Shown here one piece after another: positions 21,581 through 63,379 of a stretch of 64,000 bases of DNA. This stretch comes from Undaria pinnatifida (Eukaryota; Sar; Phaeophyceae; Laminariales; Alariaceae). The notes beneath the pieces were generated by a model that saw nothing but the letters and a program-made list of their open reading frames with translations, did no database searches and had not been told where the DNA came from. Location: NCBI GenBank assembly GCA_012845835.1, contig JABAKD010000024.1:6288578-6352577 (forward strand). Direction: 5' to 3'. A program made the translations under genes and the position numbers. Numbering within the stretch: position 1 is the stretch's first letter; every line of letters starts with the position of its first letter.

Positions 21581-21593
21581 CGTACACGAATAT

Positions 21594-21727
21594 GGTAACA
21601 TTTGTCCAATTGAGTTACTTCGACACACGACGCGTATGAACATACGTGGAAGTGTGATGAGCTTAACTTTTATTTGTATTTTTCCCCATCCGCCGGAGGA
21701 TAAAAAACGAAAAAGAAAAAGAAAAGA
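21594..21727 (+). mobile_element. Short poly(A)-tailed retroelement, copy 1
   Basis: Flanked by a perfect 10 bp target-site duplication ACACGAATAT (21584-21593 and 21728-21737). The body includes TCGACACACGACGCGTATGA, a hairpin CGCGTAT/ATACGTG with a four-base loop, GGAAGTGTGATGAGC and CATCCGCCGGAGGAT, then an A-rich tail. Two more copies lie at 41508-41598 and 63248-63365. Confidence 0.85.
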
Positions 21728-21739
21728 ACACGAATATTT

Positions 21740-24260
21740 AACAATCTTGTGGGTAGTGTACTGCGCAGTTGAGGAACGCTGTCGGTCACAAACATTTTGG
21801 CCCAAAAGCGCTACCCCCGTCGTAGCACCCCTCAGCACTATCTACTCAAGCAATGCTGAAACACTGACAGTATCGCAGTACCTACTGCCCCCTGCCCCCG
21901 GTACGGTATGCATATTTCTACCTGCTATTAGTTTTTCTATTATACTCTGCGGAAGCGTCGTTCGATGTGTGTACGGTGTTAATCAAGTTTTTGCCCTCTT
22001 CAAGTCTGACAATGGGCAAAAAAAGCTGTGAAGGTACATTGCTGACGACGTGGGATGGGGGTCGACATTTTTTCAGGTGTGGATATGAGGCCCCTGTCAA
22101 GCTACGGTATCGATCTGTCTACAAGAAAGTGTACGTTAAAAAAGTTAGCCTAGTCTAAAACAGAAGACTGCATGCAACCTATATAATCGGCGGCCTTCTA
22201 TAGGACCTTGTAAGAAATCTACTGTACTCCCTTCTTGCTCAGCCAGAAAAATATGCCAGCCTAGAGCTGTATTTCCGGATTCTTGTGAGAGGGTCGATAC
22301 CACCGTACCTGGTACGTGCTATACACGACCTGATTTCCGTGTCTATGAAGACTTATGTTGTGCCTGCTGCTTGGTAACAAAGAGGAGTCCAGTGCAGTTC
22401 GGACTACATCATTATCAGTACGGACTGCTGGCCAAGACAGCAGCAGTGCAAAGACATCGTTGCTGTTGAGAAGTGCTAGGATAACGATTGGTCGAAAAGG
22501 CACGCGAGTACAAGGGGTGTCGTTCCAGATGTTGAATATACTGGTCGCCCCGGTGGCGTATCAGGTTATCCTCGAGCCTGGTATAGGTCAGTTTCGTGAG
22601 TTCGAGCCCCGCCGAGTGCATATTCGTATAAATTCGTTGGGACTTTTTCTTGTGCACAAATTGACTTGAGGAAAGCGCGAGAGCGTGAGTTAGCAACACT
22701 CGATGAAAAATCGACGAGCAGTGGGATTGCTGAACCCTATGCGCGATGAAGATTGAAGGCAAGGACCGGGGGGGAGAGGGGACGACACCTGTGACCACGG
22801 CTTGTCCAGAAGCTGGAAAGTAGAAGTGCAACGAAAAAAAATAAAAAATACATCAACGCGTGCCAATCATATGTTTGCCCAACGAATTGACGCTTGGACC
22901 TTCTAAATAGACAAGTCATTGGAACTCGTATCATAGCCTCAAAGGCACATAGAAGCCTGCCTACTGTACTCATATGATAGCTCAGTGTTAGTAACCTAGC
23001 TTAGAGTCTAGCCCTTGAGTTGCGCCAGGTTGTGCCGAAGAAGCAGCGGTACACCCAACAGAGGCTGTGTAAACCAACAGAGTGCCAGGAGCCGGGTACC
23101 TGGTCGATTGTACCCTCCTTCTCTCCTTACATGGCGCGTGCTCTTCCGAACCAATTGACCCGTGCAACCATAGAAGGCGTTTGCTCCAGCAAGAATCTTA
23201 CGAACGATCTAAAAATAATCGTACACACCGGCAATTTTTCAAAGTCTGAAACATTAGCCCGATCGCGCTTGTACTCATCCCATTGGCCGGGCCCTCCGGA
23301 TGGATTGGTATTGGCTACGTGTGACAGTACTGCAGTTAGATATACGTAACGGCATCAAGCAGCAGCAGAAACACAAGCGGTAGTTGGACCGCATTTTTAA
23401 CGAGAACAGAGTGCCGCACAGCCGCGTAGAAGTGTGCGTATACTCCTGGTTACTCACGGATTCGTGGTGCTGTTGTTGTTACTGTGGCCTACTTGGTACG
23501 TTGTACAATCAGCCAGTATCTGTTTACAACAACATAGCACCCTCCTTTTCTACCTAAATGATGGCGTACATCCAAACGAATTGACCCGTAGATCGAATCT
23601 TACGAACGGTCCAGACAGAACGTTCTGCAGGAGTGCTTGTCGCGAGCTCGTTCCCGGACCAACAACAGTACGAACGAATATCTCCCCTAGCAGCGAGCAT
23701 CTCCGCAAGAGTCGCCCACACTAGGTCAATTAGAGGTCGCCGCGCTCGGCGGCCGCATGTGTCCGCGAGACTGCGCGCGTGGGAGCAGATCCAGCGAAGG
23801 CCACGGAACTCGACCCTCGGAGAGCGCTCGATGATTCGGGTTTCCCCCACGCGGTCGAGGTTCAACGGAACTCGCTTTAAGGGACACATGAAATTATAAT
23901 TTTTTCCGATGTCCGATCGGCTATTGGCTGTCACGAAGGATCGTATTTACGTGTATATCCCCAAGGCCGTACGTAGTTATTACTATTTTTGAGTATTTTG
24001 CCAAATTCTTACTTATCGTTGTCTTCTTCTTGAGCGGGCTCGGTTGGTACATCCCTGGCCTCTCAAGATCTCCCGCTTGAACATCGCCTCCTTCTAATAC
24101 TTGCGGAACGGTCCAGCTTTCTTTTTTTCTCTTTCATCTCTTTTTTTTTAGTTGCGTGAAGCATCATCATACCTGATCCCAGCTGAGCTGAGCTTGGCTC
24201 ATCAGCTGAGCTGAGCTCAGCAGCACACCGCAGAGCTAGCTGAGCATCGCCGCTGAGCCG
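21740..24260. other. No gene recognised
   Basis: No coding region is supported; the longest frame (138 codons, minus, 22415-22831) shows no motif. A tRNA-like internal-promoter match near 22555-22620 is discussed under rejected items. Confidence 0.4.
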
Positions 24261-24269
24261 TGCGGTGCC

Positions 24270-24875
24270 GTGCCGTGCGGGACTGTGCGGTGCTGTACTG
24301 TACCGTGCTACGTGCTTCGTGGTACTCTTTCGTACATGCCAGATATCATTCCAAGTATCATACCAGGTACCGGTACCACTACACCAGGTTTGTACGCACT
24401 ACATTGTTGAATCACAAAAAATGCACTCCCAGCTCAGTTCAGCCCAACTATAGCTCAGCAGCGCAGCGCAGCACCGAGCGGTGCCATGCCTTGCCATGCG
24501 GTGCTATGCCATGCTGCGCTGCGCTGTGCTTTCTAACATCCAGCATACGGTGTCATGCGAAGTACTTGGCAGTACCATGTACCGGCATGCGCGCGAGTGT
24601 ACTAATATCTACGTTTTCTTCATCTGTTGTCCTCTTTCCGTCATATTCATGTCCCCCCCCCCCCGCAAATCACACCCGTACTGCCGATCAGAACGTGGCA
24701 TCGCCAACGAGCACACGGCACAGCGCGCTGGGCAATCCGCTCCACACAAGTAGCTCTTGGCATTATCAAATCGCTATCAATGGTTGCGCCAAATCTGCCC
24801 CCTTCACATTTACTTGTATTGTTCCTTGCGCGGGCGTAGCGAGCGGGCGCAGCGCCCGCGGAGCGGGGCCCTCTC
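24270..24875 (+). mobile_element. Family F interspersed element, copy 1
   Basis: Rich in GCTGAGCT, GCCGTGCCGTGCGG and GCAGCGCAGCGCAG runs, followed by AATGCACTCCCAGCTCAGTT, GATCAGAACGTGGCATCGCC, ACAAGTAGCTCTTGGCATTA and GCGTAGCGAGCGGGCGCAG. The reverse complement of the same order is at 30700-31260, inside the RPC4 gene. About 550-600 bp, non-coding. Confidence 0.7.
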
Positions 24876-25327
24876 AAACAATAAAGACATGACAGCAGTC
24901 GGGACGTGAAGGATACGCAATTACACGAGGCATACTCTGTACCTGGCCTGGTATAGACCAAACCTACTGGTGGGAAAACAACAACATATGGCAGGTTCCG
25001 GGGGAAAACCAGGGCAGTCTTCGGAGAAGATAGGAAACATGGCCCTGGAATCCTGGATGTCGGTCTTGACACTCGGACTTCCCTCAATCGAGGGAAAGGA
25101 AGAGTCCGATGCCGATCCCCCGGTCGCGCACCAGCTCGGACGGCTGTGCTGCGGCTAGGTGCTCTCAACGAGACAAGGCAGACAGACAAAGCACCGGTTG
25201 GTACACACGCCGCGGCTCGACATCATCGGCGTCAATGGATTCCGAATTCCAAGATGATCATTTCGAAAAGAAAGAAAACACACCGCACAAACAGCAGTAG
25301 ATCATCGTGTAGTTAGTTTTTACCTGG

Positions 25328-25776
25328 TCCAACATCCGCAGCATTTCTTCTTCGTCCATGACCACTTCCTCTTCCTCTTCCTCTTCTTCTTCCTCCTCCT
25401 CTTGCTCTTTCTGCTCCTGCTCCTCTTCCTTCACTGCTTTGAAGTCGTGCTGGCCACCACAGACGCGGCGTGCAGTACCTTTCTCATGCCGTTGCTGGAC
25501 GTCTTTCTTGGGTCCACCATCTTCCGCCACTGGTGCAAGCGGTGTCGATCCTTGCGGAAGACCTTCTTGTCTTGCATGCGTCGCCACACCACCGTCTGCC
25601 ATAGCGGTATCCTTCGGGAGAGGGTTCGTCGCGGGCCCTGGCAACTTCGCGAGACCTATCATAAGCTCTCTGCTCTCTGCTCTCTGCTCTGAGCACACCC
25701 CTAGTACACACCCCCGGGCGTGATATCCTTTTTTCGGGGAGTTCAAATGGTTGGAAGGCATATTTAAACCGGGCAT
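25328..25776 (-). CDS. Possible acidic exon of an unrecognised gene
   Basis: The minus-strand frame opens near 25776 and runs through a Glu-rich stretch (about 12 Glu in a row, from a CTT/CCT microsatellite) to VVMDEEEMLRMLDQ, where CAG|GTAAAAAC could be a donor. Cys- and Gly-containing sequence before the acidic run is not repetitive. No domain is recognised and neighbouring exons were not found, so this may be a chance frame. Confidence 0.25.
25360..25432. repeat. CTTCCT microsatellite
   Basis: TTCCTCTTCCTCTTCCTCTT and related units. On the minus strand it would encode the poly-Glu run noted for the possible exon. Confidence 0.8.
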
Positions 25777-25779
25777 GTT

Positions 25780-26580
25780 GTCGTCTACGTATCTAGTGGG
25801 AGGGTAGTGTGTGGGCAGTGTGTCCTGCTAGTAGCAGTGGGTCAGCGGTAGCAACCATGAGCTCTGGGAAAGGTCCAGGAAGGTGAGAAGATAGGAAGCA
25901 GCCAGTCCTTGTCTCCTATGCACCCTCTCCGCCGTCTGTTTGGGTGCCATCTATCGCAGCTGAAGAAGAAGCTGCCTCTTGGCTGGCGCAACAGGGCATC
26001 TCTATAATAGGAGACTCACCGACAGAAACAGTAGCAGAAGCAGCAACAGCAACAGCAACAGAAGCAGCAGAAGTGCAGCAGTAGTACCACCGTAGTACCT
26101 CGATACTCGCACTGGCTGAAGGGTCTATGATTGTATCGCAGAGTATTCACTGCTATGTGTACCAGGCAGACTTTTACGATACATATCAGGTTCAAACCAG
26201 CCGACACATGACGAGTCGACAGTCGGTCGAGTACAGCCTGCTCCGTGCGGCGTGGGCGTGCGGCCAACCTCTCGACCAAGCACTGCAGCCTTTAAAAGCA
26301 ATTGCAGGTGACTGTTACACTGCCGACGCAACGCTGCTACTGTCAATTCTTAGCGTTCTGTTTCGTAGGAGGAGTCCTGCACTGTACTAGTCAGCGTCCT
26401 CCCTGGTGCTGTCGTTGCACTGGCGGCGGGGCGGCGGTTCCTGCGGACTACAGACCTAGTCTATACGGCGAGCGCAACCGCACACCAATGCAGCAGTATA
26501 ACGGTCCTGCCAGAAGAAATAGCTCCACAAGCAACCCAGCCTGACGTTTCCCTGGAAATAAGCAACTCGAGCATGCTTGT
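25780..26580. other. No gene recognised
   Basis: Contains a CAGCAA/CAGAAG simple repeat at 26028-26080; otherwise nothing identified. Confidence 0.4.
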
Positions 26581-26587
26581 ACAACGT

Positions 26588-26905
26588 TAGTGTGGGTTGC
26601 ATTTTTTCTCAGGTAAGAGATTTACGTAGCTTGGGCCAGCATCCCGTTTTCTTATCATGAAAACGGTATATCCTGGTTTCTTCATACCGGTATGGAAAAG
26701 GTACCTCGGGTATAACATCGGCCGTCGACGCATACTCAACCATCTGATGCCTGGTTTGTCCTTTTTCTCGAGTATGATATCTACGTACATAGCCTGCGCC
26801 ATTATCCCGTTTTATCATGAAAAAGGTATATCCAGGTTTCTTGATACCGGTATCAAAAAATTATCTGGTATGATAACATCAGCCGTTGACGCATAGTCAG
26901 CTACT
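26588..26905 (+). repeat. Two ~160 bp tandem units
   Basis: Unit 1 (about 26588-26750) and unit 2 (about 26755-26905) share TATCATGAAAACGGTATATC, TCCTGGTTTCTT, ATACCGGTAT, ATAACATCGGCCGT and GACGCATACTCA, with scattered changes. Non-coding. Confidence 0.75.
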
Positions 26906-27339
26906 TGGTACTGTACCTGGTGGCTGGCCGAAGAAATAGGGATGGCGTAAGAAGGCCGGGTTTTCATGTCGGGAACTCGGGTGTTCACACTACTACTAAT
27001 AATATTAAAATGCGTCTGTGTAAAACCTCGGGACTTTCTTACTTTCTGTATAACTGCTCCGTGTCTTGTTTTTTTCTCTATTTTGTTTCCCAGCCTGTCT
27101 TTTTTGGTGTTCAGTTCTCAAATCTCTCCCTTCCTCTGCCCACAAGACGCTGCGGGTGTTCCACTATTTCGTTCGTTTTTTTTTCAACACATTGCGACCT
27201 CGCCCCCCCCCTATCCTTCCTGTCCCCCACACCCCCAACCCCGTCTTCGCCGCGTCATGTGGCGGGTTCCATCAACCATTGCGACATTCCTTTTTCGTGT
27301 TTTCAACGGCATCTCGTCCCCCCCCTCCACCTTTCCTCC

Positions 27340-27865
27340 TGCTGGGGTTGGCGTCAGTTGGCAACGACTCTGTAAAGGACGCGTCTCGCTACGTGTGCTA
27401 GACAAGACTCACCTTTGGGGTGTTATTGCCTTTGTTCTTCTCTTTTTGATGTTTTGGCGGTACTCGAAATGCGCAGTGTCGATCGAGTTGGATTATATCT
27501 CCGCGCAAGGGGGATGATGTCACGTAGTGTGAATATGGTAATGCACCCACGAGGCAGGTACATAAATATCCCCGTTGCTGTCTCTTCAAGTGGCCACGCC
27601 AGAGAAACAACAAATTTATTCGAAGCTTTCATCCATATGCAAGAAGGTACGCACAAGGTGCGGAAGGCCTCATTAGTGGTTCTTAGGACGATGCAGCTCA
27701 CCCTTCTTGCGACCTGCCGAACACCTCACGACGCTTCGGGCTTGGTGCACGCGATGTTTGCCTGGTCGGCAAAATCCCGACATGCTCCGTCTCGGCATTG
27801 GAGCCATGCGAGTGTATAGGGTCTTGAGACTACGGCTATGCATGAAATGAGTCCCCCCCCCCCCT
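27340..27865 (+). mobile_element. Family D interspersed element, partial copy
   Basis: Shares GGGGTTGGCGTCAGTTGGCA, GCACCCACGAGGCAG, GAAGGTACGCACAAGGTGCG and GACCTGCCGAACACCTCACG with copy 1 and ends before a poly-C tract. The left part is diverged. Confidence 0.7.
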
Positions 27866-28109
27866 TCCCCGGCCTCCTCTTCCTCAGGTTGCCACCCCTT
27901 CATCTTCGCCGTGTCATGTGGCGTATTTAATCAACAACCCCCGACCCCTCTTTTCCTTCCCCCCGCGTTCCTCAAATCCATTTTCGCCGCGTTTTATGCC
28001 TCTTTGTATCAACCATTGCGACAGCGAACCGACCAAGCCGAAGTTCCGACCGAAACCCCAAGCGAGAAAGAAGCCCGCGCCCCCACCGCCTCCGTCAGGT
28101 TGAGAACAT

Positions 28110-28232
<123 letters not shown>

Positions 28233-28234
28233 TT

Positions 28235-28950
28235 TGTCTTGCTTCGAAAGCGAAGGGGGGAGGGGAAGGAGAAGGATAGCGGCTGTTGTTGTCCCGGCAC
28301 GTGCCCATTGAAAACCACCCGGAAGCGCAAATCCAAGGCCATCGCAACCGTTTCACAAATGCCGGAGCGATTTATCCAAACCGGCGATGTTGCCACGAGC
28401 TGCCGCGAGCTGCTACTGGCTGCCTCCTCTCCTTCTCGGGTAGATGGCGTCTGTACGCCGGAACTACCAGCTTGCCCATCTTCGACGTACTTACGTGACT
28501 ACGAGCCGCTAACCCCCCCCTCCCGCTTAAACGCCCGTTCCCGCTTGCTCGTTTTGCAATTTTCAGCTACTGACTACCGAGCAGCGGCAGCTAACTACCG
28601 TTCGGGGGGTGGTGGCGGCGCGCCTGGGAGGGGTGGGGGAGGGGGTTGGGGGGCGGGGGGGCGGGGGCACGAAGGCAAGAGAGGGGGGAGGGGGGGTTTG
28701 TTTTTGGATTCAATGGCGGTTACTAGTTGTGGAGGGTTACACACACCTTCCGATGTGTTTCAAAGGATCATAGTTAACAGTTCGGAGACGTGGAGCGTCG
28801 AGGCTTTCTCTACTGGGTTTGTTGCTGTTCACAGTTGGGTGATACGTCGAACAGATCGTATAGATCCCCATTTCACGATCTAGCCCTTTCGGGACAGATA
28901 GGTCTCTCATCTAACTTTTTTTTTCAACTGCCCGGACGTTTTGAAGGGCA
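28235..28950. other. No gene recognised
   Basis: Contains G-rich runs (28598-28700). A frame opens on the plus strand from the GTT repeat to 28883 but shows no domain. Confidence 0.35.
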
Positions 28951-28959
28951 ATATACTTG

Positions 28960-29200
28960 GGATTTTGGGTCTGGACTGATTTTTTTCAGCTGTATAAAGG
29001 TTAGCATGATCTGCAAGATCTAGATCGTGTTTGCCTGGTGGGATCTGTATACCACCGCCCGTGCGCACAAGTAGACCGGGTGAGATATGTAGGATGCGGC
29101 TCTTGTGCAGCATATCATGACCGCAGATGTATGATCTAGACGATCTAGATCGTGCCTTGTCAGCTGTGTGAGTTTTTCGGGGTCGGGGCTAGGCACGCGG
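28960..29200 (-). repeat. Satellite E fragment, opposite orientation
   Basis: GATCTGCAAGATCTAGATCG, TTTGCCTGGTGGGATCTGTA and GTGCGCACAAGTAGACC match reversed parts of the 14.5-16.4 kb array. Confidence 0.6.
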
Positions 29201-29284
29201 GTGAACAAGGAGGCTCCCTTTTGGGGGAAGCTCGGACCAGTTGTAACTGTAGCGTGAGGGCTTGTTTTTTATAGTGTCGTCGAT

Positions 29285-29535
29285 GTTGCTGGTTTTGGTG
29301 GTGTTGGTGTTGGCGTTGGTGGTGTTGGCGTTGGTGGTGTTGGCGTTGGTGGTGTTGGCGTTGGTGGTGTTGGCGTTGGTGGTGTTGGCGTTGGTGTAAG
29401 TGTTGGTGTTGGTGTTGGTGTTGGTGTTGGTGTTGGTGTTGGTGTTGGTGTTGGTATTGGTGTTGGTGTTGGTGTTGGTGTTGGTGTTGGTGTTGGTGGT
29501 GTTGTTGGTGTTGTTGGTGGTGTTGCTGGTGTGAT
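29285..29535 (+). repeat. (GGTGTT)n / GGTGGTGTTGGCGTT minisatellite
   Basis: Five 18 bp units of GTTGGTGGTGTTGGCGTT type, then more than fifteen GGTGTT units. It lies about 300 bp upstream of the proposed first RPC4 exon. Confidence 0.95.
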
Positions 29536-29837
29536 TGACCTCGTCGTCGATGGTGTTGTCGTTGGTGCTGCTATTCTTGGTAATTGCTGCTGGTTTTGTT
29601 GCCGTTGTGATGGTTGTCTTTGTTTATTGTGGAGGTTGCTGATATTTTTCGTTGTATAAGTTAGCTGCTATGGTTTTTCTTTTGTCGTCGCTAGCTGTTG
29701 TTGTCGTCGCCATTGTTGCCGCTTCTATCTGTGTTGTAAGGGCTTTGGTGTTTATGCACCCCCTTCTCCACGACGCGCTAAGAACCTCGAACCGTTTTCG
29801 TCGTATTCTATCATTCTCCAGGGAGAAGCCAGCGTCC

Positions 29838-29952
29838 ATGGCAGGGCTACAATTCGAGCAGAGGCGGTGGACGAGATGGGCCGGGGGGACGTGGGCGGCA
29901 CGGGGGAAGGGGGCGGGGGAGGGGACGGGGCGGTTTCGTCCCCGTGGGTCAG
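29838..29952 (+). CDS. POLR3D: RPC4 exon 1 (proposed)
   Basis: ATG at 29838, 38 codons plus one base, ending TCAG|GTGAGT, a near-consensus donor. The leftover G completes GAG with exon 2. The encoded GRFRPRGS followed by EEVDRKRQ resembles the basic N-terminal region of RPC4. The start could lie further upstream. Confidence 0.5.
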
Positions 29953-31821: not shown

Positions 31822-31872
<51 letters not shown>

Positions 31873-41495: not shown

Positions 41496-41507
41496 TTATG
41501 ACTGCAC

Positions 41508-41598
41508 TGTTCGACACACGACGCGTATGAAAATACGTGGAAGTGTGGTGAGCAAAAGCTTTTTTTTTTCCACATCCGCCGGAGGATAAAAAAAAAAA
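41508..41598 (+). mobile_element. Short poly(A)-tailed retroelement, copy 2
   Basis: Flanked by an 8 bp duplication GACTGCAC (41500-41507 and 41599-41606). The body starts TGTTCGACACACGACGCG, so it is shorter at the 5' end than the other copies, and keeps the hairpin (CGCGTAT, GAAA loop, ATACGTG) and ATCCGCCGGAGGAT before the A tail. Confidence 0.85.
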
Positions 41599-46305: not shown

Positions 46306-46414
46306 GGTAATTTGGCATACTATCGCTAAATAACCATTGTTTGATTGTAGCGTGCAACGATAGAAGTGTACGAATATTCACGCCCTGTACAAATACAATA
46401 TTTGCTATTTTTCT

Positions 46415-46795
46415 GGCAGGCAAATACTCTCTGGAAAACCTGCGCAAATATTTGTCTGGAAGCAAATACTTTCTTGAGAAGCTGCGCAAATATTTGTCTG
46501 GAAGCAAATACTTTCTTGAGAAGCTGCGTAAATATTTGTCTGCAGGCAAATACTTTTTTGAGAACCTGTGCAAATATTTGTCTGGCAGGCAAATACTCTC
46601 TGGAAAACCTGCGCAAATATTTGTCTGGAAGCAAATACTTTTTTGAGAAGCTGCGCAAATATTTGTGTGCAGGCAAATACTCTCTTGAGAACCTGTGCAA
46701 ATATTTCTCTGGCAGGCAAATACTCGCTTGAGAAGCTGCGCAAATATTTGTCTGGAGGCAAATACTGCCCTGAGACAAATACACGCAACTATTAT
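46415..46795 (+). repeat. 42 bp minisatellite, about nine units
   Basis: Unit: GCAAATATTTGTCTGGAAGC, then AAATACTTTCTTGAGAAGCT, then GC. Variants alternate (GCAGGCAAATACTCTCTTGA). Units of 42 bp keep one frame open on each strand, producing KYFLEKLRKYLSG-type peptides that are probably not proteins. An ACAAATAC phrase flanks both sides at about 46390 and 46780. Confidence 0.9.
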
Positions 46796-48640: not shown

Positions 48641-48644
48641 ACCG

Positions 48645-50570: not shown

Positions 50571-50577
50571 GAAGACT

Positions 50578-50845: not shown

Positions 50846-50899
50846 ACGTGTAAAGATGTAAAGCAACACCCAAACACGGCACAACATGTACAGAAATAG

Positions 50900-52995: not shown

Positions 52996-53012
52996 CATAC
53001 GATGCTCCTTAG

Positions 53013-53525: not shown

Positions 53526-53565
53526 GCTGTACAATACAATACAATACAATACAATACAAACAACA
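53526..53565 (+). repeat. (ATACA)n microsatellite
   Basis: Six to seven ATACA units. Confidence 0.95.
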
Positions 53566-53689
53566 TTGTTAGACTTTTAGTTGGAGGATTTCCATGATAT
53601 ATCTGACCAACAGTGTCTACTGTCAAGCTCCTCTGTCCTACAACAACAGCGAGTGGTGTACGTGTACCTTTTTCCCGAAGTCCCATGGG

Positions 53690-54165
53690 ACACTTTGCCG
53701 GAGGCAATCGGCAACCATGCGTAAGCCATGGGCAACCGATGGGCAGCCCATGGGCATCCAAAGGGCAACCCATGGGCTATCATCATCAACCAATGGGCGT
53801 CCTATGGACGGGCATCCCTAGGGCTATCACCGCCAACCCATGTGAGGGAATGCCATGGGTAATCCATGTGCAGCCCGTGAGGAACCCATGGGCTATCACC
53901 ACCAACTCATGGGGATATTCGTTGGCATTCCATGGGCCATTGCCACCAACAAGGGGCAGGTATCCCACCCATGGGCATTCCATGGTAACCCCATGGGCTA
54001 GGTGAAAATAACAGCGCCCAATGAAAGACAAACAACGTAGTTGCTCGTAGGTGCTCGCATCTACACTGTCTTTTTATTTTATATTTAGCATGAGGGACCC
54101 ATGGGCACCCTGTACATACCCTGTACATATTCAACGGGTCGCCCATGGATTGGCCATGAGACCTT
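53690..54165. repeat. CCATGG-rich degenerate array, part 1
   Basis: Units of about 20-30 bp around GGGCAACCCATGGGC and CCATGGGCTATCACC. Part 2 is at 54650-55400 and part 3 at 55650-56175. CCATGG recurs dozens of times through the three parts. Confidence 0.85.
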
Positions 54166-54167
54166 TT

Positions 54168-54528
54168 GGTTTGGGTAAGCCATTGATAAACCTTTTGCAA
54201 GTGGTCCAACTACTAATACCCCACTAATACCTAAAAAAATGGCGTCGTCGGCAAGACGATGGATTTTTTTCGGGTCGTGGGTTCAAATCTCACCATCCAC
54301 AACTATAAACTTCTCCAGACTTTCCCCATGTCGAACTTGAAAAATGCTCTCCCCGGCATACCCAGGAAATGAAGCCGCTTGGATATTGACAGGCCCGCCC
54401 GCATATCCGGCCGACATGGTATCCCGCCGTTTCAGGGGGGGCAGCGTTATAAGGCTTAGTTTGGGTAAGCTACTGGTTAACCTTTCGCAAGTGGTCAAAC
54501 GCACTAATACCCCACTAATACCTTAACA
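54168..54528. mobile_element. Insertion bounded by ~68 bp direct repeats
   Basis: GGTTTGGGTAAGCCATTGAT...CCCCACTAATACCT (54168-54235) is repeated as AGTTTGGGTAAGCTACTGGT...CCCCACTAATACCT (54456-54523), with about 80% identity. Between them is 220 bp including GGGTTCAAATCTCACC, a match to the tRNA B-box/T-arm. It interrupts the CCATGG array. It could be a SINE-like element or a solo-repeat pair. Confidence 0.5.
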
Positions 54529-54649
54529 GCTCTCCGTGGTCCGGCCATAGCTAGTACTCTCGTGCAAAGCATTCAAAATAGGAGAACAAATATGTAGGGC
54601 TCACTAGCCTTTGTGTTGCATTCGAACCTGTGTTGGGATCTACTCTACC

Positions 54650-55400
54650 CCACGCGATGCTCACGGATTGCCTATGGGATGCCCATGGAATGCCCATGGA
54701 ATTCCCATGGGTTGGTGGTGATGGTCCATGGGTGGCCCACGGGTTGGCCACGCGATGCACCTGGATTGCCCCTGGGAGGTTCTCGGGGTGTCCGTGGGAT
54801 ACCGTTGGGGTGCCCATGGGATGTCCAAACGTTTTGCTGGTACTAGACCACGGGTTCATTGGTCACCCACGGTTGACCCATGGGTCACCCACGGCCAGCA
54901 TTTGGTTTCGCCCATCGATCATCCACGGATAGTCCATGTGTCACGCCCGGGATGGCCCATGCGCCACCCATGGTTAGCCCTTGTGTATCCCATGGATCAC
55001 CAGCGGGTAGGGCATGGGTGACCACCGGTTAGCGCGTGAGTCACCCACGGCTAGCCCATGGGTTGCTCATGGGTCACTCATGGTCCCACAGCTATCCCAT
55101 CTTGGGGCATCCGCGGATGACCTATGAGCTGTCCATGTGTGACACCCGTGGGCCACCCATGGGTTGCCCAAGGGTCGCCCACGGGTTGCCGACTACTTTG
55201 GTGTGTTAGGCCATGAGTCATCCATGGTCCGCCCATGCGTCATGCATAAGTTAGAGGTGGCGCGGCAATCCATGGTTGGGGACCTTGTTCATTTTTGGTT
55301 GTGGCGCGCGGGTCACCCATGAATCAATCATGACTTACAGGTGGTAGCCCATGGGTCGCCTATGGGTCACCCGCTGTCTGGAGGTTAGCCCAGAGCCATT
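54650..55400. repeat. CCATGG-rich degenerate array, part 2
   Basis: Period about 23-25 bp: CCCATGGGTCACCCACGGCT, AGCCCATGGGTTGC. Open frames through it (for example 54630-54932) encode HG/TH/PW-rich peptides and are judged compositional. Confidence 0.85.
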
Positions 55401-55404
55401 CTAT

Positions 55405-55645
55405 GGTAGCTCCCCCAACGTTTCTTTAACAAAATCGCCGGATTCAAAACCAGCTCCCTATCGTATCTCCTGAAATATGGTGTCCCTCGACACCTCGACG
55501 TCATCGATTGATCGACCTTTGCACGCAAGAAAATATATGGATACTTTGTTTTCAATAGTATCCTTCCTTGTATCGAGCAACCATGAAACGTCCGTTAATG
55601 AAAATCGCTGGTTTTCGGGGAGGGCTGTCGTAGAATCAGTCCCCA
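55405..55645 (-). mobile_element. Family H element, inverted copy inside the array
   Basis: GGTAGCTCCCCCAACGTTTC, AAAACCAGCTCCCTATCGTA, AGTATCCTTCCTTGTATCGA and AACCATGAAACGTCCGTTAA are the reverse complement of 50578-50845. It splits array parts 2 and 3. Confidence 0.75.
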
Positions 55646-55649
55646 TGAG

Positions 55650-56175
55650 TTCTGTACTCTTAGCCCATGGGTCACCCACATGGGTCACCCATGGCTGACT
55701 GATACACCATAGGTCCCCAACGGGGCACCCATGACTTAGTGGTCCTAGTCTACCGGTCCCCATGGGCCATTCACGGCCCCACGGTTAGGCTATGAGTCAC
55801 CCATGTGCCATGGGTCACCCACGGATGTTCACTCATGGGTTTGTTGTGTTTTGCCCCATGCTTCACCCTTGTGTCACTCACGGTCCCACGGTGTGTCTGG
55901 TCAATGGTTCACCCACGGCTAGCGTATGGGTCAGCCATGGTTAGTCTATGGGTCGCCCAGGGTTCGTCCATGGGTCACCTATGCGTCGCTCATGGATCAC
56001 CCGTGGGCCACCCATGACTTCGTGATACTACCCCATAGGCTACCCACGGGTAGCCCATGACTCGACCATGGGCTACCCACGGTACCACGGCTGGGCCTTC
56101 GGCCAATCGCGGATAGTCTGTGGGTCGCCCTTGGGTGTTCCATGGGAGTCCCATCGGTGGCCCATGGAAGGCGAA
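55650..56175. repeat. CCATGG-rich degenerate array, part 3
   Basis: CCCATGGGTCACCCACATGG to CCCATGGAAGGCG, the same unit type as parts 1 and 2. Confidence 0.85.
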
Positions 56176-56259
56176 AATATAAGCTGGAAATATCGAAAAA
56201 TAGCACATATCACGCAGTTGCAAAACACTGAGTGCAGTACAGTCGTTGTTCCGAATTAG

Positions 56260-57240
56260 TGCAGAGCCTTACCAGATAACACTACCGGCGCTAACGCGAG
56301 ACCCCGAACTACCATTGAGTATTGCTGTACTCTGAAAGACCAGGTTGTGGCAAGTAAATTCCACCGCACTAACGCAGGGAGCCTCATAAATGGGTGCCGC
56401 ATCAACACGGACCCACCGCTGCATCGACAATTCAATCGGTTGAATTCACAGCCCGAGTGTCCGGAATGATTTCGTAGAAATACAAGGGGTACCGAGCCAT
56501 GCGTTCGACTGGCTAAACTTAGCGGTGAAATGGTGGCATATCTCCTTCCGTAGCCTGCGTCAGTGGTCGATGAGATGAAATATACTGTGAATGAGGTGGA
56601 GGGTGTAAGGGAGGAAGTTGAAAAGGTAAAGAGTTGGGACATGGAGACGGGAGATGATGAGGCGCAGGATGAGTGCTGCAGTCACCGCCGGCACCACCCC
56701 GTGCTCGGCTGCGTTCCCACAATGATGAAGGCGACGGGGGAAGGGGATCCTGGACGGCCAAGAGATTGCTCTGCGGTTTGGTTGTGAAACTGAATTATTA
56801 ATACAAGTGTCATATCCATCGAGCTGCGTGGGAACGTGAGTTGCCCAGCCTAGTAACGTGGGGGAATGAGCTGGAATCGGCACGAGGTACCTGGTTACGG
56901 TGAAGGACGCCGAGAGGCACGGGCACTTGGCTGGTGAAGGCTACCCCCCGTTCTGACCACGATAAGACCCTCTGTTTTCGTTTTCGGTTTATATTTGTAC
57001 TCGTTCTGAGTATAGCAGCGTAGCAATCGTAACTATTTGCTTTAATGCGAAGTAGAGGCACCTAGCACAAACAATTCTTCGTCCCATGTTCTTACCATGC
57101 TCTTCATGCGTATAATCGTGCGTAAAATACGCCGGAAGTAAAGAGAAGAAAATGAATTACCCATCTTGGAGAAATATGATGCTGTGTACGAATGATGACT
57201 GATGGCTGCCTTACGTAACGCTGGCTTATGGCGGTCGTAT
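56260..57240. other. No gene recognised
   Basis: Minus frames up to 128 codons (56256-56642) show no motif. Confidence 0.4.
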
Positions 57241-57249
57241 TTTCCAGGT

Positions 57250-57530
57250 ATATATTATAAAAATTAAAATACACTCCAGCTGTGAGATCGAATATTTTGT
57301 CGAAACTCATGTTTGAAAGCTGTATGTGATACTCCGATCGCGCGTATTACGGGTTGTGTGTCCTCACTTAGGGTATAGGTCGGCGACTCCCCTTGCAACT
57401 ACAGTGTAGCAATCAGGGTCAACAAGGTGATGTTAGGCAGTCTGTGCGCGGAAACTATAAAACCGTTTCTCAGGGGGACAAAATCTGACAGCTGCGGAAG
57501 GAAATGCATCAGTTTATCAAGTGAATACTG
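57250..57530 (+). mobile_element. Family G interspersed repeat, copy 3
   Basis: GCTGTGAGATCGAATATTTT, ATACTCCGATCGCGCGTATT, ATAGGTCGGCGACTCCCCTT and GCGCGGAAACTATAAAACCG match copy 1. Confidence 0.8.
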
Positions 57531-57534
57531 TAAG

Positions 57535-58570
57535 CCGAATAACCGGTGAGGGGAGGGCGGAGTTTTTAAGGACGTGGGGGCCTGGTTTTGATCTAAAGGG
57601 GGGAGGGAGGGGGGGAGGGGGGGGAGGGGACGGGTGGGGCAGGTCAATTTGTGCGTGGAAACTATAAATCCTTCTTGTGGGGGAGGGGGGGGGGATATGT
57701 GCCCAGGGAGGCGGGGGGCGGGGGGAGGGGGGTTCAGGTCGCATAGATATAGGGGTTTGCTATACGTGTGGTGCTAGTTCTAGGCGATGGTGCGGGTGGT
57801 GGGGAAGAAGGGGGCGTTAGGGGCGGGGGTGGGTGGGAATTGCAGCAGCGGCATGGACGGCTCTAAAACAATGACGAGGCGATATCCAGGGCGTGGAAGT
57901 GTTTATTACTCTGGCGGATTTCGATATTATTAGGTGGGGTTTTTAAGCAAGAGAAAGCGAGGAAAAAAAAGGGGGAAGGGGAAGGGTTTCCAAGAGGTTT
58001 AGGTCATATACAATATTTAAATACACTCCAGCTATGAGATCAAGGATTTGGTCGACACTGATCTTCGCAACATTGTGTGTGATTCTCCGATCGCGCGTGT
58101 TGATCACATATGTAGGGGCTTGCTATACGCGCGGTGCTGGGTCTAGGCGATCGTGCGGGGTGTGGGGAGGGAGGGGGCGTTGGAGGGGGGGAGGGGGGAT
58201 GAATGAAAGCTACGTCATGGATGGCTGGAAATATAATGACGTGATATCAATTGCTTAGAAGTGTTTATTACTCTGGCTGATTTCGATTGTAAGTGGGGCG
58301 TTTGAACGAACTGGGCGGGGAACAAAAGGGAGGGCGGGGGCGGGGCGGAGGGCGGAGATGAGTTGGAGCTACGGCATGGATGGCTAGATTGATAATGAGA
58401 TTATATCAGCTGGCTGGTAGTGTTTACTAATCTGGTAGATTTTGATTTCAGGTGGGGCGTTTGAACAAGAGGGATCGGGGGGCGGGGGCGGGGGGGCGAG
58501 CATTTCAATATGTGCGCGGAAACTATAGACCTAAACCCTTAAAGGGGACGAATGTGACGGTTGCAGCAAG
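57535..58570 (+). repeat. G-rich repeats with partial family G copies
   Basis: Three or four imperfect units of 190-250 bp near 57640-57940, 58090-58310 and 58330-58480 share TATACGTGTGGTGCTAGTTC, GAAGTGTTTATTACTCTGGC and GATTTCGAT, separated by long G runs. Fragments of family G (ACACTCCAGCTATGAGATCA; GCGCGGAAACTATAGACC) lie within. Confidence 0.6.
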
Positions 58571-58579
58571 AAGACGCCC

Positions 58580-59700
58580 CTTTATATCACCCGCCTGGTA
58601 ATGTTTATTATTATGGAAGGTTTGATGTTACATGTAGTATGCAACCCAGTTCTTAGGTGTTGTAGTAAATAACGTGTTAAAAGCTTCATAATTTGTTACT
58701 GTATATGTATCGAAAGATAGAGTATTTCAATCGATAGGTACAACCATGTAGACACCATTATTTTCTGACATCGCTAATTATAAGAAAGAGATACATATTG
58801 TTAAATACAACAGGCGAGGTGGTGTGGTCATGCAATGTCACCGCCATTGAGAACGAAAGGGAGAAATGCGAATCGTTACGAGTGTTTTGAAAGGAACGCT
58901 TAGTGTACACGCGCTCAATTACGTTACTTCGTTAGTCACACTGCGTAAGGCATAGATTGGGAGGCGATCATGCAGACGGTATGTACGGAATACCTTACGT
59001 AATACTTCGAAGTAAGTTGGTAGTGCGGTTTACCGCAATTTTAACATATTTGTCTGTCGTACCCCCTTTTCACATTGTTATTGTCTCACATATACGATTT
59101 TACGCCTATGATTTTTGCCGTGCCGATGTGGGGCTCAGGGGTCGCCAACTCAAAGCACAGATATACATCTTACAAATAAATATACCAAGCGAGGTGACGT
59201 GGGCATGCGATGTCAGCACTATTGAACGCGAGGGTGACTTTACTTTGTTAGGCATGTGCTACTGCGTTTGGTAGAGGTTTTCAGGCGATCATGCAAACGG
59301 CCGGAGGCACGAAATACCCTGCGTAATAGGTTGGCAGTAGTGTGGTCTACCGCAGTGGTATATATACGGCAGTTTAGACCCTGTTTTTTTTGCAATCAAC
59401 CACTTGATTCCCGACCGAGCAGGTCGGCGAGGTTTGGTTTCTGAGAATTTTTACGCGTTGGGTACGTTAGCAATGAATGGGTAGAATGATTTTTTGGGGC
59501 TGGTCGCACCGTTGCGCAGAAGAAGACGATTGACGGTGGTATTTATTTTATAGGAGTACAGTGTACTTCCGGGATAGCAAAATTTCAACCTCACGGAAAC
59601 CCCACAACAGTAGTGCAACTATTTCCACCTGGAAATACACCGCGTGAATACGGAATAAGGCGGTAAATAGAGCATAACCCATTTATCACAAGACAATACG
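58580..59700. repeat. ~300 bp tandem pair, otherwise no gene
   Basis: GGCGATCATGCAGACGGTAT, then CCTTACGTAATACTTCG and TTACCGC (58963-59036), is repeated as GGCGATCATGCAAACGGCCG, then CCTGCGTAATAGG and CTACCGC (59283-59352). The spacing is about 320 bp. No coding region is supported. Confidence 0.5.
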
Positions 59701-60145
59701 AAAGGTGCCCCTGCTAAAAGCCGAGGTGATGGAGACCCTGCTGTACGGGTGTGACTTGGACGCTCGGCCAGGAGCACTTCGCTGAGCTCTCAATGGCACA
59801 CCACAACCTCCTCCAGACGACCATTGGCTTCAAACGCCGACAACGCACCGACCACACCTCATGTCGTACGCCAAGGCTCTCAAGAAGGCACAAGTGTGGA
59901 AGGATTCAGACGACCATCCGAAAATGACTCTTCCTCTTTGCGGGGACCATACAGTGGGCATCCAATGAGCGGCTGGCTAATCGCGTGACGTCCGAGACGA
60001 TGGCTGGTGGGGAAAACCCGGGACCAGGCCTACCGAAAAATAACTGGGCACACCGCCTAGCAGACGACATGAGGGTATTCCAAGCCACCGAGAGGTCTAC
60101 GGATAGCTCCCTTTTGCCGTTCGGAGTACAGGCGGTTTGATAATA
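59700..60145 (+). pseudogene. 3' fragment of a second LINE reverse transcriptase
   Basis: With frameshifts it reads LLKAEVMETLLYGCD (the METLLYGC phrase typical of LINE thumb regions), HFAELSMAHHNLLQT, FKRRQRTDHTSCRT-like and RLFLFAGTIQWASNERLANR, then ENPGPGLPKNNW. No catalytic motif remains. The relic is diverged from the 9.8 kb LINE. Confidence 0.7.
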
Positions 60146-60429
60146 ATAGCTGAGGGCGGGTGAGAAGAGTGGGCCCACGCAGCATTCGACGCCATGAGCA
60201 GCGACAAGGGGACACCGGGGGGGAGGGGGGGGGGCAGCGGTACTGATATATAGCTGTCGACGAATGCAAGAACAGTGTGGCATGTCGTGTGGCAGTACCG
60301 GTTTGACTAATACGTGGAACGTGTGCTACTATATATAGCCGTGAACCCTACAGTACGGTATATTTTTGCGTTGTTCGTTTTCGTTAATAAGCCCAATCAA
60401 TGGGGGGAGCGCGAAAGCGGCAGCAATGG

Positions 60430-60692
60430 CGCGTGTAGTCTTGCTTGTTTGTTTTGTCCTTTTTGCCTTGTTTCTCTGTTTGTTCTCTTATATTGGCTCC
60501 CCGCCGGCTTTATGCCGGTGTTTTCTTCCTCTTCTTCGTGGTGGTTCGGACGTGCAAGACTGCTATCTGTTATTCTTCAGCATGTATGTTTTTCCTGCAG
60601 CCATTCCGATCTTCTTGCATCACATTCTTCAAAACTCCTGTCGGCGTTCCCCCCCTCTTTTCGTGCTTTTTATATTATTATGTTGACTGATT
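60430..60692 (+). repeat. Family M repeat, direct arm
   Basis: TCTTCTTGCATCACATTCTT, CAAAACTCCTGTCGGCG and neighbouring T-rich phrases are mirrored at 61310-61560. Both translate to FLHHILQN(S/T)CR in the same relative frame, so an old coding origin is possible. Confidence 0.6.
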
Positions 60693-60694
60693 GT

Positions 60695-60945
60695 ACGATA
60701 GCCCTCCCCCAAAAACCAACGATTTTCTATAACGAACGTTTCACGGCTGCTCCACACGAGGAAGGGTGCCACGAGTTCTAAGAGCATCCTCAAATATTTT
60801 CTTGTTTGCGAAGGTCCATCGCACGATGACGTCGGGGTGGTGAGGGGCATTGCTCTTCAGTAAATACGGCCGGGAGCTGGTTTCCGGAGATTTCATTGAA
60901 GAAAAGTTGGGGGCTACCGTCGAACGACTCTGTTTCTTATCTTTA
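60695..60945 (+). mobile_element. Family H element, copy 3
   Basis: AACGAACGTTTCACGGCTGC, CACGAGGAAGGGTGCCACGA, GATGACGTCGGGGTGGTGAG and ACGGCCGGGAGCTGGTTTCC match 50578-50845. Confidence 0.75.
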
Positions 60946-61019
60946 CGGTCTGGCTTGTCAGTTGCTTTGTCGTGTTCTGGTACCCGGTACGATAGCATTT
61001 CACTTGTTGTACCTTGATT

Positions 61020-61260
61020 AATCATGAATTGCGAAGTGTGTGTGTTTTTTCTGTCTGTCTCTGACCACATAACGTGTATCTCTCTAGGATGAATAGTCAG
61101 CACGGACACTGGGTGTACTGATTGTGTGGGTGTTGTACTCACATTAAACAGTTCATTCTACCCAACGACATCAGTACGCCCAGGGTCCGTGCTGATTCCT
61201 CATCCTAGATGAATACAAATTCTGTGGTCACGGAGTGTGACACAGAGTAAACCAAACAGT
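61020..61260. repeat. Fold-back element (family I)
   Basis: The left arm (about 61030-61125, with CTAGGATGAATAGTCAGCAC and GGACACTGGGTGTACTGAT) and the right arm (about 61165-61250, with ATCAGTACGCCCAGGGTCCG and TGCTGATTCCTCATCCTAG) are inverted over some 90-100 bp, around a loop of about 40 bp. Confidence 0.75.
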
Positions 61261-61309
61261 CGCAATTCATCAAGGTAAAGCAAGTGAAGTGCTAGCGTAC
61301 CGGGTACGA

Positions 61310-61560
61310 GAACATATTAAAACAAGCCAGGCCATGTAAAAAGAGAAACAAGGAAAAAAGAAAAATACAAACGACAGGTGTTCTGAAGAATGTGATGCAA
61401 GAAGAAGAGCGGAAAAAGTAGAAAAGGCTGCAAGCGCAACACCATACGTGCTGAAAAGGAACAACAGATACCTGTTGCACGGACAAAACAACAAGAAGAT
61501 AACTTCTTCTGTTGTTGCATGGACAAACAACACAGAGAAGATAACTAAACTGTTGTTTAA
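61310..61560 (-). repeat. Family M repeat, inverted arm
   Basis: ACGACAGGTGTTCTGAAGAA and TGTGATGCAAGAAGAAGAGC are the reverse complement of the direct arm at 60430-60692. Confidence 0.6.
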
Positions 61561-61769
61561 AGGAGTAGTACTCCGAGTGGGGGATGCGTGGTGGGTCGGT
61601 GTTGGTAAGCGTGCTCCTCATGGGTCTCGGGGTCTTTGGTTGGTCTCTCCTCATGCCTCGCTGAATAGACTCAGAACCGTTTATGCATTGTTTCCCTGCA
61701 TAGAATACTAGAAGACAGACAACATAACATGGCTGCAGGGTAGCGCAGGGTAGCGCAGGGTGTGTTTGT

Positions 61770-61880
61770 GTTCTTCACATTAAACCGTTCTTCTACTCGT
61801 CGACATCCAGCACACCCAGTGTCCGTACTGATTCTTCACCCTAGAAAGACCAGCTCTGTGGTCACAAGCTACGACACAGA
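61770..61880 (-). repeat. Solo arm of fold-back family I
   Basis: CAGCACACCCAGTGTCCGTA, CTGATTCTTCACCCTAG and GTGGTCACAAGC match the right arm of 61020-61260. Confidence 0.6.
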
Positions 61881-61984
61881 GATAATGCATCGTAATGCAT
61901 TCGACAACGCAATGTCATGCCCTAGTACTGGGTACGACAGGCACAACATACATACGTCAGCAACAGAAATACATTGGAAGAGAG

Positions 61985-62180
61985 AATACGAAATAAACAA
62001 AAACAAAAAACAAAAACAAAATAATAATAAGAAAACATATAAAACAAAGATAAAAATAAAACAAAAATGAAACAAACAAAATGAGGGGGAAATCGAAGAA
62101 ACAACCCAACCGGAAAGGAGAGCCGAAGCTCGGAAAAGAAACATAATAAAAATAAAATAAAATAAAGTAAGGTAAAACCA
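61985..62180. repeat. A-rich simple repeats
   Basis: AAACAAAAACAAAAAACAAA and AAATAAAATAAAATAAAG runs. Long minus-strand frames here encode Phe/Leu-rich peptides and are compositional. Confidence 0.8.
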
Positions 62181-62184
62181 AAAT

Positions 62185-63235
62185 AAGATAATCCGAACAC
62201 GAGCCAAAAACCAGGGTAGAGCAGGGTAGTGAGATGAAGGGCGTCATGCTAGTCCCATCATCGTCACCTACTTTACCGCCCATCTATGATGTTCTTGACG
62301 TGAATGTGACATGTAATATCACGTGGTTTCGCCTCAACCATGACATGTGTCATGCTTTCACATCGAATCTATAAACTATCCTTCTACGGAGGGCACTCCA
62401 TTACATTTGGCCACCCTGAATAGTCGTAGATGCAGATCACCTAGCAATCAAAGGATGTCGACAAAACATTCAGAATTGGAAAGGAGATCGAAGATGCGGC
62501 TATTTGCAACAAGCGAAATGAGGCTACAGTTTCCCCCACACCTTGTAATATTGAGGCATACATGCTTCATTGCAAGATATACAACCCTATGATGGAGCTC
62601 ACAACCGTGAGAGCTCGAGAAAGGGTAGGTACCTACGGTATACCAGTAGCAATCGGCCTACGAAAACACGAAGAGCGCGGTCACTGAGCGCAAGGATGCG
62701 AAGGGAGCCAAAGAGGAAGGTATAGACAGACGCGGAATCAATGTCAAAAGGCAAGAAGGGAACACGTGTCACGCTGTGAAAGCCAGACAATTTTATGGCC
62801 AGCACACGTGGTGTGCTTGTGTTCTTCGCACGAAACTGATAGTTATATTTTCGTATTGATGTTGTGCTTTCATTAATACCGTACGACGAGATTGTAGTTT
62901 GGCTGTGGGCAAAAATGGTTGATGACGCACGTGTTCTATGACAGAAAATTACATTACCTATGTAGCAAGGATGCGTATTTCCTCACCTCGAACCCAAAAA
63001 TATCCGGGAAACAGTTTTTTTCAGCTTTTAATTTTCCTGACCTAATCCCTTGTTTTCTCTCATTCCAGGAAAAAAGGCGTCATTTGGGGGGGGACAATAA
63101 TTATCATCTCCTGGTGGTCCATGAACCACGCTCGAATACACAATTCATCCAGGCCTCTTGACAGCCATTTTCAGTCATTTACACTCTTCACAGTGGCGTT
63201 AGGTAGAAAGAACGGTATCATGTGAAGACAACAAC
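62185..63235. other. No gene recognised
   Basis: Nothing coding or repetitive is identified. Confidence 0.4.
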
Positions 63236-63247
63236 GACAGCAGTACG

Positions 63248-63365
63248 GCTGCGAAAGCAACTGAGTTAAATCGACACACGACGCGTATGAAAATACGCGG
63301 AAGTGTGGTGAGCTAAAGCTTTATTTTTCCCCATCCGCCGGAGGATAAAAAAAAAAAAAAAAAAA
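63248..63365 (+). mobile_element. Short poly(A)-tailed retroelement, copy 3
   Basis: Flanked by a perfect 12 bp target-site duplication GACAGCAGTACG (63236-63247 and 63366-63377). The body keeps CTGAGTTAAATCGACACACG, the hairpin CGCGTAT, GAAA, ATACGCG (seven Watson-Crick pairs), GTGTGGTGAGCTAAAG and ATCCGCCGGAGGAT, then 18 or more A. Confidence 0.9.
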
Positions 63366-63379
63366 GACAGCAGTACGAA

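What the first reader, a model, noticed from the sequence alone, without database searches (positions are those of the whole stretch)
21584..63377. Short poly(A)-tailed element with conserved GNRA-type hairpin and target-site duplications (three insertions)
Copies at 21594-21727, 41508-41598 and 63248-63365 end in an A tail and are flanked by different perfect duplications (10, 8 and 12 bp), so each was inserted independently by target-primed reverse transcription. All keep a 7 bp stem CGCGTAT/ATACGYG; the second stem pair is G-C in one copy and G-U in two, so pairing is preserved. The loop is GAAA in two copies and GAAC in one. 5' ends differ in length. No tRNA A/B box is seen, so it may be a hairpin-bearing LINE 3' end or an unrecognised SINE.
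Basis: partly seen in the sequence, partly recalled or inferred. Interest (0 to 1): 0.8.

Follow-up and report, generated by a model that had tools for sequence, protein, structure and literature searches.

The report
Abundant SINE-like retroposon in kelp
The three short poly(A)-tailed repeats are broken-off ends of a roughly 406-base "hitch-hiking" jumping element, present in about ten thousand copies in a kelp genome (most likely the wakame, Undaria), that the published annotation seems to have left among unknown repeats.

Summary
In detail: three copies at the stated coordinates, A-rich tails, perfect flanking duplications of 10, 8 and 12 bp, and the hairpin. All three are 5'-truncated stubs (last ~75-100 bp) of a non-coding element of ~406 bp plus an A tail, starting CCGAGGACCAACGCC and ending CCCCATCCGCCGGAGGAT(A/G)AAAA. 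Genome-wide there are 3329 exact copies of its 28-nt 3' end and 1161 copies of its 27-nt 5' head (up to 3 mismatches); total roughly 10^4. Of 72 copies tested, 34 have exact duplications of 8 bp or more (shuffled pairings: mean 0.98, maximum 4). It is a short non-autonomous retroposon moved by target-primed reverse transcription. The host is very probably Undaria pinnatifida (a contig length equals the published scaffold N50), where only 326 SINE fragments were annotated. The hairpin is stable but has no covariation support: the G-C/G-U difference is one recurrent site, and 10 of 13 other inner-stem changes break pairing. The 'LINE 3' end' alternative is not supported. The partner LINE was not found: the four LINE 3' ends read differ. 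No tRNA or Rfam-known head was found. Closest precedent: RTEX-N1 of Ectocarpus. A new family of a known kind.

The parts
21584..21593 (+). 5' target-site duplication of copy 1 (ACACGAATAT)
   Evidence: sequence
21594..21727 (+). copy 1, 5'-truncated, 85% identical to a young full-length copy over 21607-21701; the first ~13 nt do not align to the element
21624..21656 (+). hairpin of copy 1: inner stem 21631-21637/21642-21648, loop GAAC; outer stem 21624-21628/21652-21656
21728..21737 (+). 3' target-site duplication of copy 1
   Evidence: sequence
41500..41507 (+). 5' target-site duplication of copy 2 (GACTGCAC)
41508..41598 (+). copy 2, 5'-truncated at element position ~331
41515..41547 (+). 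hairpin of copy 2: inner stem 41522-41528/41533-41539, loop GAAA
41599..41606 (+). 3' target-site duplication of copy 2
63236..63247 (+). 5' target-site duplication of copy 3 (GACAGCAGTACG)
63248..63365 (+). copy 3, 5'-truncated at element position ~307, 99% identical to a young full-length copy over 63247-63346
63275..63307 (+). hairpin of copy 3: inner stem 63282-63288/63293-63299, loop GAAA
63366..63377 (+). 3' target-site duplication of copy 3

Best explanation
The three copies are 3' stubs of a high-copy, non-autonomous, SINE-like retroposon of a kelp (very probably Undaria pinnatifida), with young and old subfamilies. The element is ~406 bp plus an A-rich tail. Its RNA is made by an undetermined polymerase. 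A LINE-encoded protein, supplied in trans, nicks genomic DNA and copies the RNA from its A-tailed 3' end. Synthesis often stops early, leaving stubs like those in the window, and repair leaves target duplications, mostly 8-16 bp where they can be recognised. Shown: repetition, A tails, duplications, frequent 5' truncation, a defined full-length 5' end, no coding frame. Inferred: action of a LINE in trans, and recognition of the 3' terminus (CCCCATCCGCCGGAGGAT) or of the A tail alone. The hairpin is probably part of a folded RNA, but no function for it is shown.
For: 3329 exact copies of the 28-nt 3' end, backwards control 0; 1161 copies of the 27-nt 5' head with up to 3 mismatches, control 0. 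34 of 72 copies have exact duplications of at least 8 bp at the expected place; shuffled pairings give mean 0.98, maximum 4. 30 of 30 loci cut out for the 5' head start within the first 5 positions of the element, and 29 of 30 run to its 3' end. Copies start at many different element positions. 28 of these 30 (one is the query copy itself) are at least 97.5% identical to it, the lowest 92%, though they were picked as best matches; a bystander copy of full length is only 74% identical and has many relatives, so the family has old and young members. No long frame in the copy translated. Precedent: RTEX-N1_Ec32 in Ectocarpus (PMC12477816; passages and the first part of section 5 read).
Against: No LINE with the same 3' end was found: four stretches read about 1-2.6 kb downstream of reverse transcriptases contain a different 3' end...GCGAGTTAATG..(AAC)n or a near form. 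19 of 72 copies have no exact repeat of 5 bp or more at the expected place, and 19 more only 5-7 bp, where the control is not negligible. The 3' terminus is intact (exact CCATCCGCCGGAGGAT) in only 4 of the 10 aligned full-length copies, and the T-rich stretch before it is the most variable window, so its role as recognition site is a guess. No polymerase III promoter could be shown, and T runs at 81-84 and 384-388 would be expected to stop polymerase III (the rule is general knowledge).
Confidence: 0.9

Rival explanations
1. Internal deletion derivative of a LINE (like RIME of ingi, recalled): the 5' head and 3' end are a LINE's own untranslated ends, with the coding part lost. It would still move as described.
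For: Origin of the body is unknown; 5' truncation and A tail are LINE-like.
Against: No LINE with either end was seen: the four LINE 3' ends read differ, and 30 of 30 head loci read are the short element. Only best-scoring loci were read, so a rare LINE could be missed.
Confidence: 0.2
2. 5'-truncated 3' end of a LINE.
For: Hairpin near an A tail; 5' truncation.
Against: A defined 5' head that follows a target duplication directly in many full-length copies; no long frame. Among the 100 tails listed (all on C1), one lies 1.8 kb downstream of a reverse transcriptase; it is a truncated copy of the short element next to the (AAC)n end.
Confidence: 0.04
3. Retrocopies of a host structured non-coding RNA gene, repeatedly copied by LINE machinery, so that a working RNA gene is the source.
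For: The 408-nt copy folds better than 99 of 100 shuffles (z -2.67); windows 85-109 and 97-121 are the best conserved among ten copies (0.976, 0.964); no tRNA head found.
Against: No Rfam family reaches its gathering score in the window or comes near it in two copies; old and young subfamilies look like a self-perpetuating repeat; no covariation.
Confidence: 0.1
4. The hairpin is a selected recognition element for the reverse transcriptase rather than a by-product of common descent. (Compatible with the best explanation.)
For: Cores fold at z -4.1 to -5.7; stem positions vary less than the loop (outer stem 6/711, inner stem without site 358 15/938, loop 10/292, neighbouring positions 114/4597).
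Against: 10 of 13 inner-stem changes outside the recurrent site, and 6 of 6 in the outer stem, break pairs; covariation equals shuffles in ten copies; copies were found by similarity, which biases variation counts.
Confidence: 0.3

Closest known systems
RTEX-N1_Ec32 (Ectocarpus; PMC12477816)
   Same: Brown alga; short non-autonomous element; thousands of copies; 5' region of unknown origin; thought to depend on a LINE.
   Different: ~600 bp against ~406 bp; its 3' end is shared with RTE-X LINEs, which was not shown here. Its sequence was not held, so homology was not tested.
SINEs with tRNA, 5S or 7SL heads
   Same: Short, non-coding, A tail, target duplications, high copy number.
   Different: No tRNA found (ARAGORN), no Rfam match of weight; internal T runs; no convincing A/B box pair.
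RIME / NARTc type LINE-derived short elements (recalled, not looked up)
   Same: Short non-coding passengers of LINEs.
   Different: No LINE sharing the 5' end was found among the loci read.

Membership tests
SINE | short, non-coding, dispersed in high copy number | tested here: met
   ~406 bp, no long frame in the copy translated; 3329 exact tails and 1161 heads
SINE | target-site duplications and 3' A-rich or simple tail | tested here: met
   34 of 72 with at least 8 bp against mean 0.98, maximum 4, in shuffled pairings
SINE | internal polymerase III promoter (A and B boxes) | tested here: inconclusive
   With a short B-box consensus, one-mismatch sites lie at 5, 41 and 329 and a one-mismatch A-box site at 323, overlapping the last; no usual A-B spacing (no shuffle control for these). 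With an 11-nt B-box consensus only 41-51 fits, with 2 mismatches, as in 37% of 2000 shuffles. T runs at 81 and 384
SINE | head derived from tRNA, 5S or 7SL RNA | tested here: not met
   ARAGORN finds no tRNA in 4 loci with full-length copies; no Rfam match at gathering score in the window. At E up to 10, one full copy (L036, best E 0.68) and one partial copy (L028, best E 0.054) give only matches far below gathering scores
SINE | 3' end shared with a partner LINE | tested here: inconclusive
   4 of 4 LINE 3' ends read differ; other LINE families could not be read
RTEX-N1 group (Ectocarpus) | sequence homology to RTEX-N1_Ec32 or RTE-X 3' ends | not testable with these tools
   Sequences not held; only the description was read
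LINE | reverse-transcriptase frame upstream of the shared 3' end | tested here: not met
   30 of 30 head loci read are the short element; the one listed tail near a reverse transcriptase is a nested insertion
conserved RNA hairpin | covariation in the stem | tested here: not met

The most novel reading that the evidence does not exclude
A SINE-like lineage whose body is a self-perpetuating structured RNA of unknown ancestry (no tRNA, 5S or 7SL head), in which the 5' domain (TCCGGCGGA, 49-57) pairs with the 3' terminus (TCCGCCGGA, 394-402), so that only full-length RNA presents the 3' end in the form the LINE enzyme prefers. That would make truncated stubs dead although they keep the 3' end (their being dead is itself not shown).
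Probability: 0.07. Interest if true: 0.65.

Novelty: new member of a known kind. Interest (0 to 1): 0.38.

Why it matters
A family with on the order of ten thousand copies, some nearly identical, is probably a major recent source of insertions in an important farmed kelp, yet the published annotation of the inferred host counts only 326 SINE fragments (0.003% of the genome) and leaves 36.1% of the genome as unknown repeats (PMC7058681, passages). It supplies insertion markers and, with RTEX-N1 of Ectocarpus, suggests that brown algae carry SINE-like elements whose heads do not come from the usual small RNAs.

Tried and rejected
Rejected: LINE 3' end (30 of 30 head loci read are the short element). 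Covariation support for the hairpin. A tRNA or Rfam-known head. The intact LINEs as bearers of the same 3' end (4 read). The window's own LINE remnant as partner: in the 30 loci of its kind (about 1.5 kb either side, the window's own included) the three tail matches are copies of the short element; its own 3' end was not determined. Of 79 tail-like matches in the sequence then held, 74 were preceded by the element body; of the other five, two look like chance, two are the opposite strand of the nearly palindromic tail, and one (L032) led to a search that found only another repeat upstream, so I take it as a very short stub. An A-tailed, LINE-like family has a different 3' end. Clustering the sequences in front of A runs gave no LINE with this tail. 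The hairpin pattern has 0 exact matches in viral contigs and 0 in bacterial/archaeal genome contigs.

Not reached: a random sample for an unbiased copy count; a genome-wide count of the hairpin with mismatches (tool busy each time); an empty-site test in a relative (none held).
Full report
OBSERVATION. The three copies, their A tails and their perfect duplications (10, 8, 12 bp) are in the sequence at the stated coordinates. The hairpin core occurs only at these three places in the window even with three mismatches, and not once in 100 shuffles. The 42-nt cores fold far better than shuffles (z -4.10, -4.95, -5.69).

WHAT IT IS. Searching the whole genome (511,146,479 bases, 68 contigs) with copies 1 and 3 brought in more copies that extend further 5' to different points. 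The longest gave a 5' end directly after a target duplication. A search with that 5' region (153 bp) had 1956 first-look candidates, of which the best 40 were scored: one, the query itself, at 100% and 39 at 99%. In the 30 loci cut out, 30 of 30 start within the first five positions of CCGAGGACCAACGCC, the 40 nt in front differ, and 29 of 30 run to the 3' end; L058 stops at 359. The element is therefore ~406 bp plus an A-rich tail. The copy translated has no long frame. The window copies align to positions 318-406, 331-406 and 307-406. The first ~13 nt of copy 1 do not align.

NUMBERS. The exact 28-nt 3' end occurs 1658 + 1671 = 3329 times, against 0 for the backwards control. The 27-nt 5' head, with up to 3 mismatches, occurs 578 + 583 = 1161 times, control 0. 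I recounted copies that did not themselves bring in their locus: 12 bystanders in L001-L060 (a first count of 11 missed L010:1215), 3 in L061-L094 and 3 in the window, 18 in all. Of these 7 of 18 carry the exact tail, which scales to roughly 8,600 copies with wide error. Three copies in 108,113 bases of L061-L094, loci fetched for other reasons, scale to about 14,000. I put the total at about 10^4. One of the 18 reaches the 5' head; 10 of 18 start between positions 305 and 348. One of the others (L032) is cut by its locus end, and pieces under about 55 bp are not detected. So most copies are short stubs. These samples are small and partly from neighbourhoods of other copies.

INSERTION. From 78 aligned copies I dropped three duplicate views (L001, L009, L031), two that lack the 3' end and one too near its locus end. 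For the remaining 72 I looked for exact repeats between the 5' flank and the sequence after the tail. Lengths found: none 19, 5 bp 9, 6 bp 4, 7 bp 6, 8 bp 9, 9 bp 4, 10 bp 3, 11 bp 3, 12 bp 8, 13 bp 2, 14 bp 2, 16 bp 2, 18 bp 1. So 34 of 72 have 8 bp or more; pairing flanks of different copies, 200 times, gave a mean of 0.98 and at most 4 of 72. The 19 without a repeat and the 19 with 5-7 bp are not evidence for duplications. The script misses imperfect repeats and those more than 6 nt from the aligned start, such as the 10-bp duplication of window copy 1, which it scored as 5. Five of the 34 (L020, two in L030, L047, L012), most of them in simple repeats, were left out of a table of target sites. 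In the 29 kept, A is frequent at -4 (19) and -2 (19) and G at +1 (18); leading A's had been stripped, so +1 cannot be A, and no background was computed. This is at most a weak preference.

AGE AND SUBFAMILIES. One bystander, L012:836-1249, is a copy from position 4 to 408 that is only 74% like the young ones. A search with it had 3529 first-look candidates; 42 matches were returned, itself included, nearly all at 75-79% identity to it. 20 of the 42 stop before query position 381, that is, they do not match L012's own tail region, which carries an insertion. I fetched 8 that reach position 411 or further, so this set is selected for having the 3' end. Aligned with L012 and one young copy, they share the head from AGGACC on. 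The exact terminus CCATCCGCCGGAGGAT is present in 4 of 10 and recognisable in the rest. The best conserved windows are 85-109 and 97-121 (0.976, 0.964), the least conserved 373-397, the T-rich stretch before the terminus (0.836). The family thus has old and young members.

THE HAIRPIN. In 73 copies the G-C/G-U difference is a single recurrent site (358: T 58, C 14, gap 1). In the inner stem 17 changed pair cells keep pairing, but 14 of them are that site; of the other 13, 10 break and 3 keep (23%, against 36% expected for random substitutions). In the outer stem 6 of 6 changes break. The stems vary less than the loop or the surroundings (outer 6/711, inner without 358 15/938, loop 10/292, neighbouring positions 114/4597), but the copies were found by similarity, so this is weak. 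In the ten full-length copies, 42 pairs in 7 helices including this one show what shuffles show: 94.3% of cells paired against 94.2%, covariation score 0.119 against 0.119. Sliding the partners drops pairing to 30-47%, as expected for a structure derived from these sequences. RNAalifold finds 5 of 109 predicted pairs with a change on both sides in some copy, but its covariation term is unfavourable (+1.49). A stable fold is therefore present but not shown to be selected.

PARTNER AND ORIGIN. The genome holds many reverse-transcriptase frames (3526 first-look candidates, 150 scored). Four stretches downstream of such frames were read (L091-L094): each contains an end of the type ...GGACTTGATTATGCGAGTTAATG..(AAC)n or a near form, which I take as those LINEs' 3' ends. 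A family with LINE-like A-rich ends also exists, with a different terminus. Exo_endo_phos_2 (PF14529) has no match. Among the first 100 tails listed, all on C1, one lies 1.8 kb downstream of a reverse transcriptase; it is a truncated copy of the short element beside an (AAC)n end. No tRNA was found, no Rfam family at gathering score in the window. A full copy (L036; best E 0.68) and a partial one (L028; best E 0.054) gave only matches far below gathering scores. B-box-like sites exist (5, 41, 329), but not in the usual spacing with an A box, and the best fit to a longer consensus occurs in 37% of shuffles. T runs at 81-84 and 384-388 speak against polymerase III (general knowledge).

A POSSIBLE HEAD-TAIL HELIX. 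The nine bases TCCGGCGGA (49-57) are the exact complement of TCCGCCGGA (394-402); 1.7% of 5000 shuffled bodies match the last 18 nt as well. The minimum-energy fold of one copy uses it. In the ten copies 88.9% of its cells pair, the lowest of the seven helices; one pair shows a change on both sides in one copy, no more than shuffles give. It was noticed after the fact and remains a lead.

HOST. Contig C34 is 16,510,065 bases long, exactly the scaffold N50 of the published Undaria pinnatifida assembly of 511,280,173 bp in 114 scaffolds (PMC7058681, passages); the total here is 133,694 bases shorter, in 68 contigs. I take the host to be U. pinnatifida (Phaeophyceae, Laminariales), an inference, not a label. 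That paper lists 326 SINE fragments (17,815 bp) and 36.1% unknown repeats. I did not see its repeat library, so that this family lies among the unknown ones is inferred from the numbers.

COMPARISON WITH THE KNOWN. The closest description found is RTEX-N1_Ec32 of Ectocarpus: ~600 bp, more than 6000 copies, 3' end shared with RTE-X LINEs, 5' origin unknown, possibly a SINE (PMC12477816; passages and section 5 part 1). The new family appears to work like it; whether it is related by descent could not be tested. Searches for a printed account of this family (listings only, apart from the two papers named) showed none; the library holds open-licence papers only and repeats are seldom findable by words, so this is not proof.

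Noticed in passing
window 9768-11697 (+): Remnant of a LINE: reverse-transcriptase match (RVT_1, E 5.1e-13) with a 171-bp tandem duplication at 9907-10246; 153 matches of its part 10299-10757 counted genome-wide among 1736 first-look candidates.
   Followed up: partly
window 22536-22852 (+): Copy of another dispersed family ending ...CACCTGTGACCACGGCTTGTCCAGAAGCTGGAAAGTAGAAGTG and an A-rich tail, its end seen in 13 other held loci.
   Followed up: partly
L091-L094, L103: LINEs with (AAC)n ends; among the 150 scored reverse-transcriptase matches, open frames of 1250-1267 aa are common.
   Followed up: partly
window 46406-46766: Tandem array of about 8.5 copies of a 42-bp unit, also reported with periods of 127 and 169.
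   Followed up: no
window 4079-5044 (-): Frame matching 2OG-Fe(II) oxygenase families (PF13640, E 7.1e-10).
   Followed up: no
L019 and L023 (both contig C30, about 97 kb apart): Near-identical truncated copies with nearly identical flanks on both sides, so the element lies inside a duplicated segment or larger repeat.
   Followed up: no
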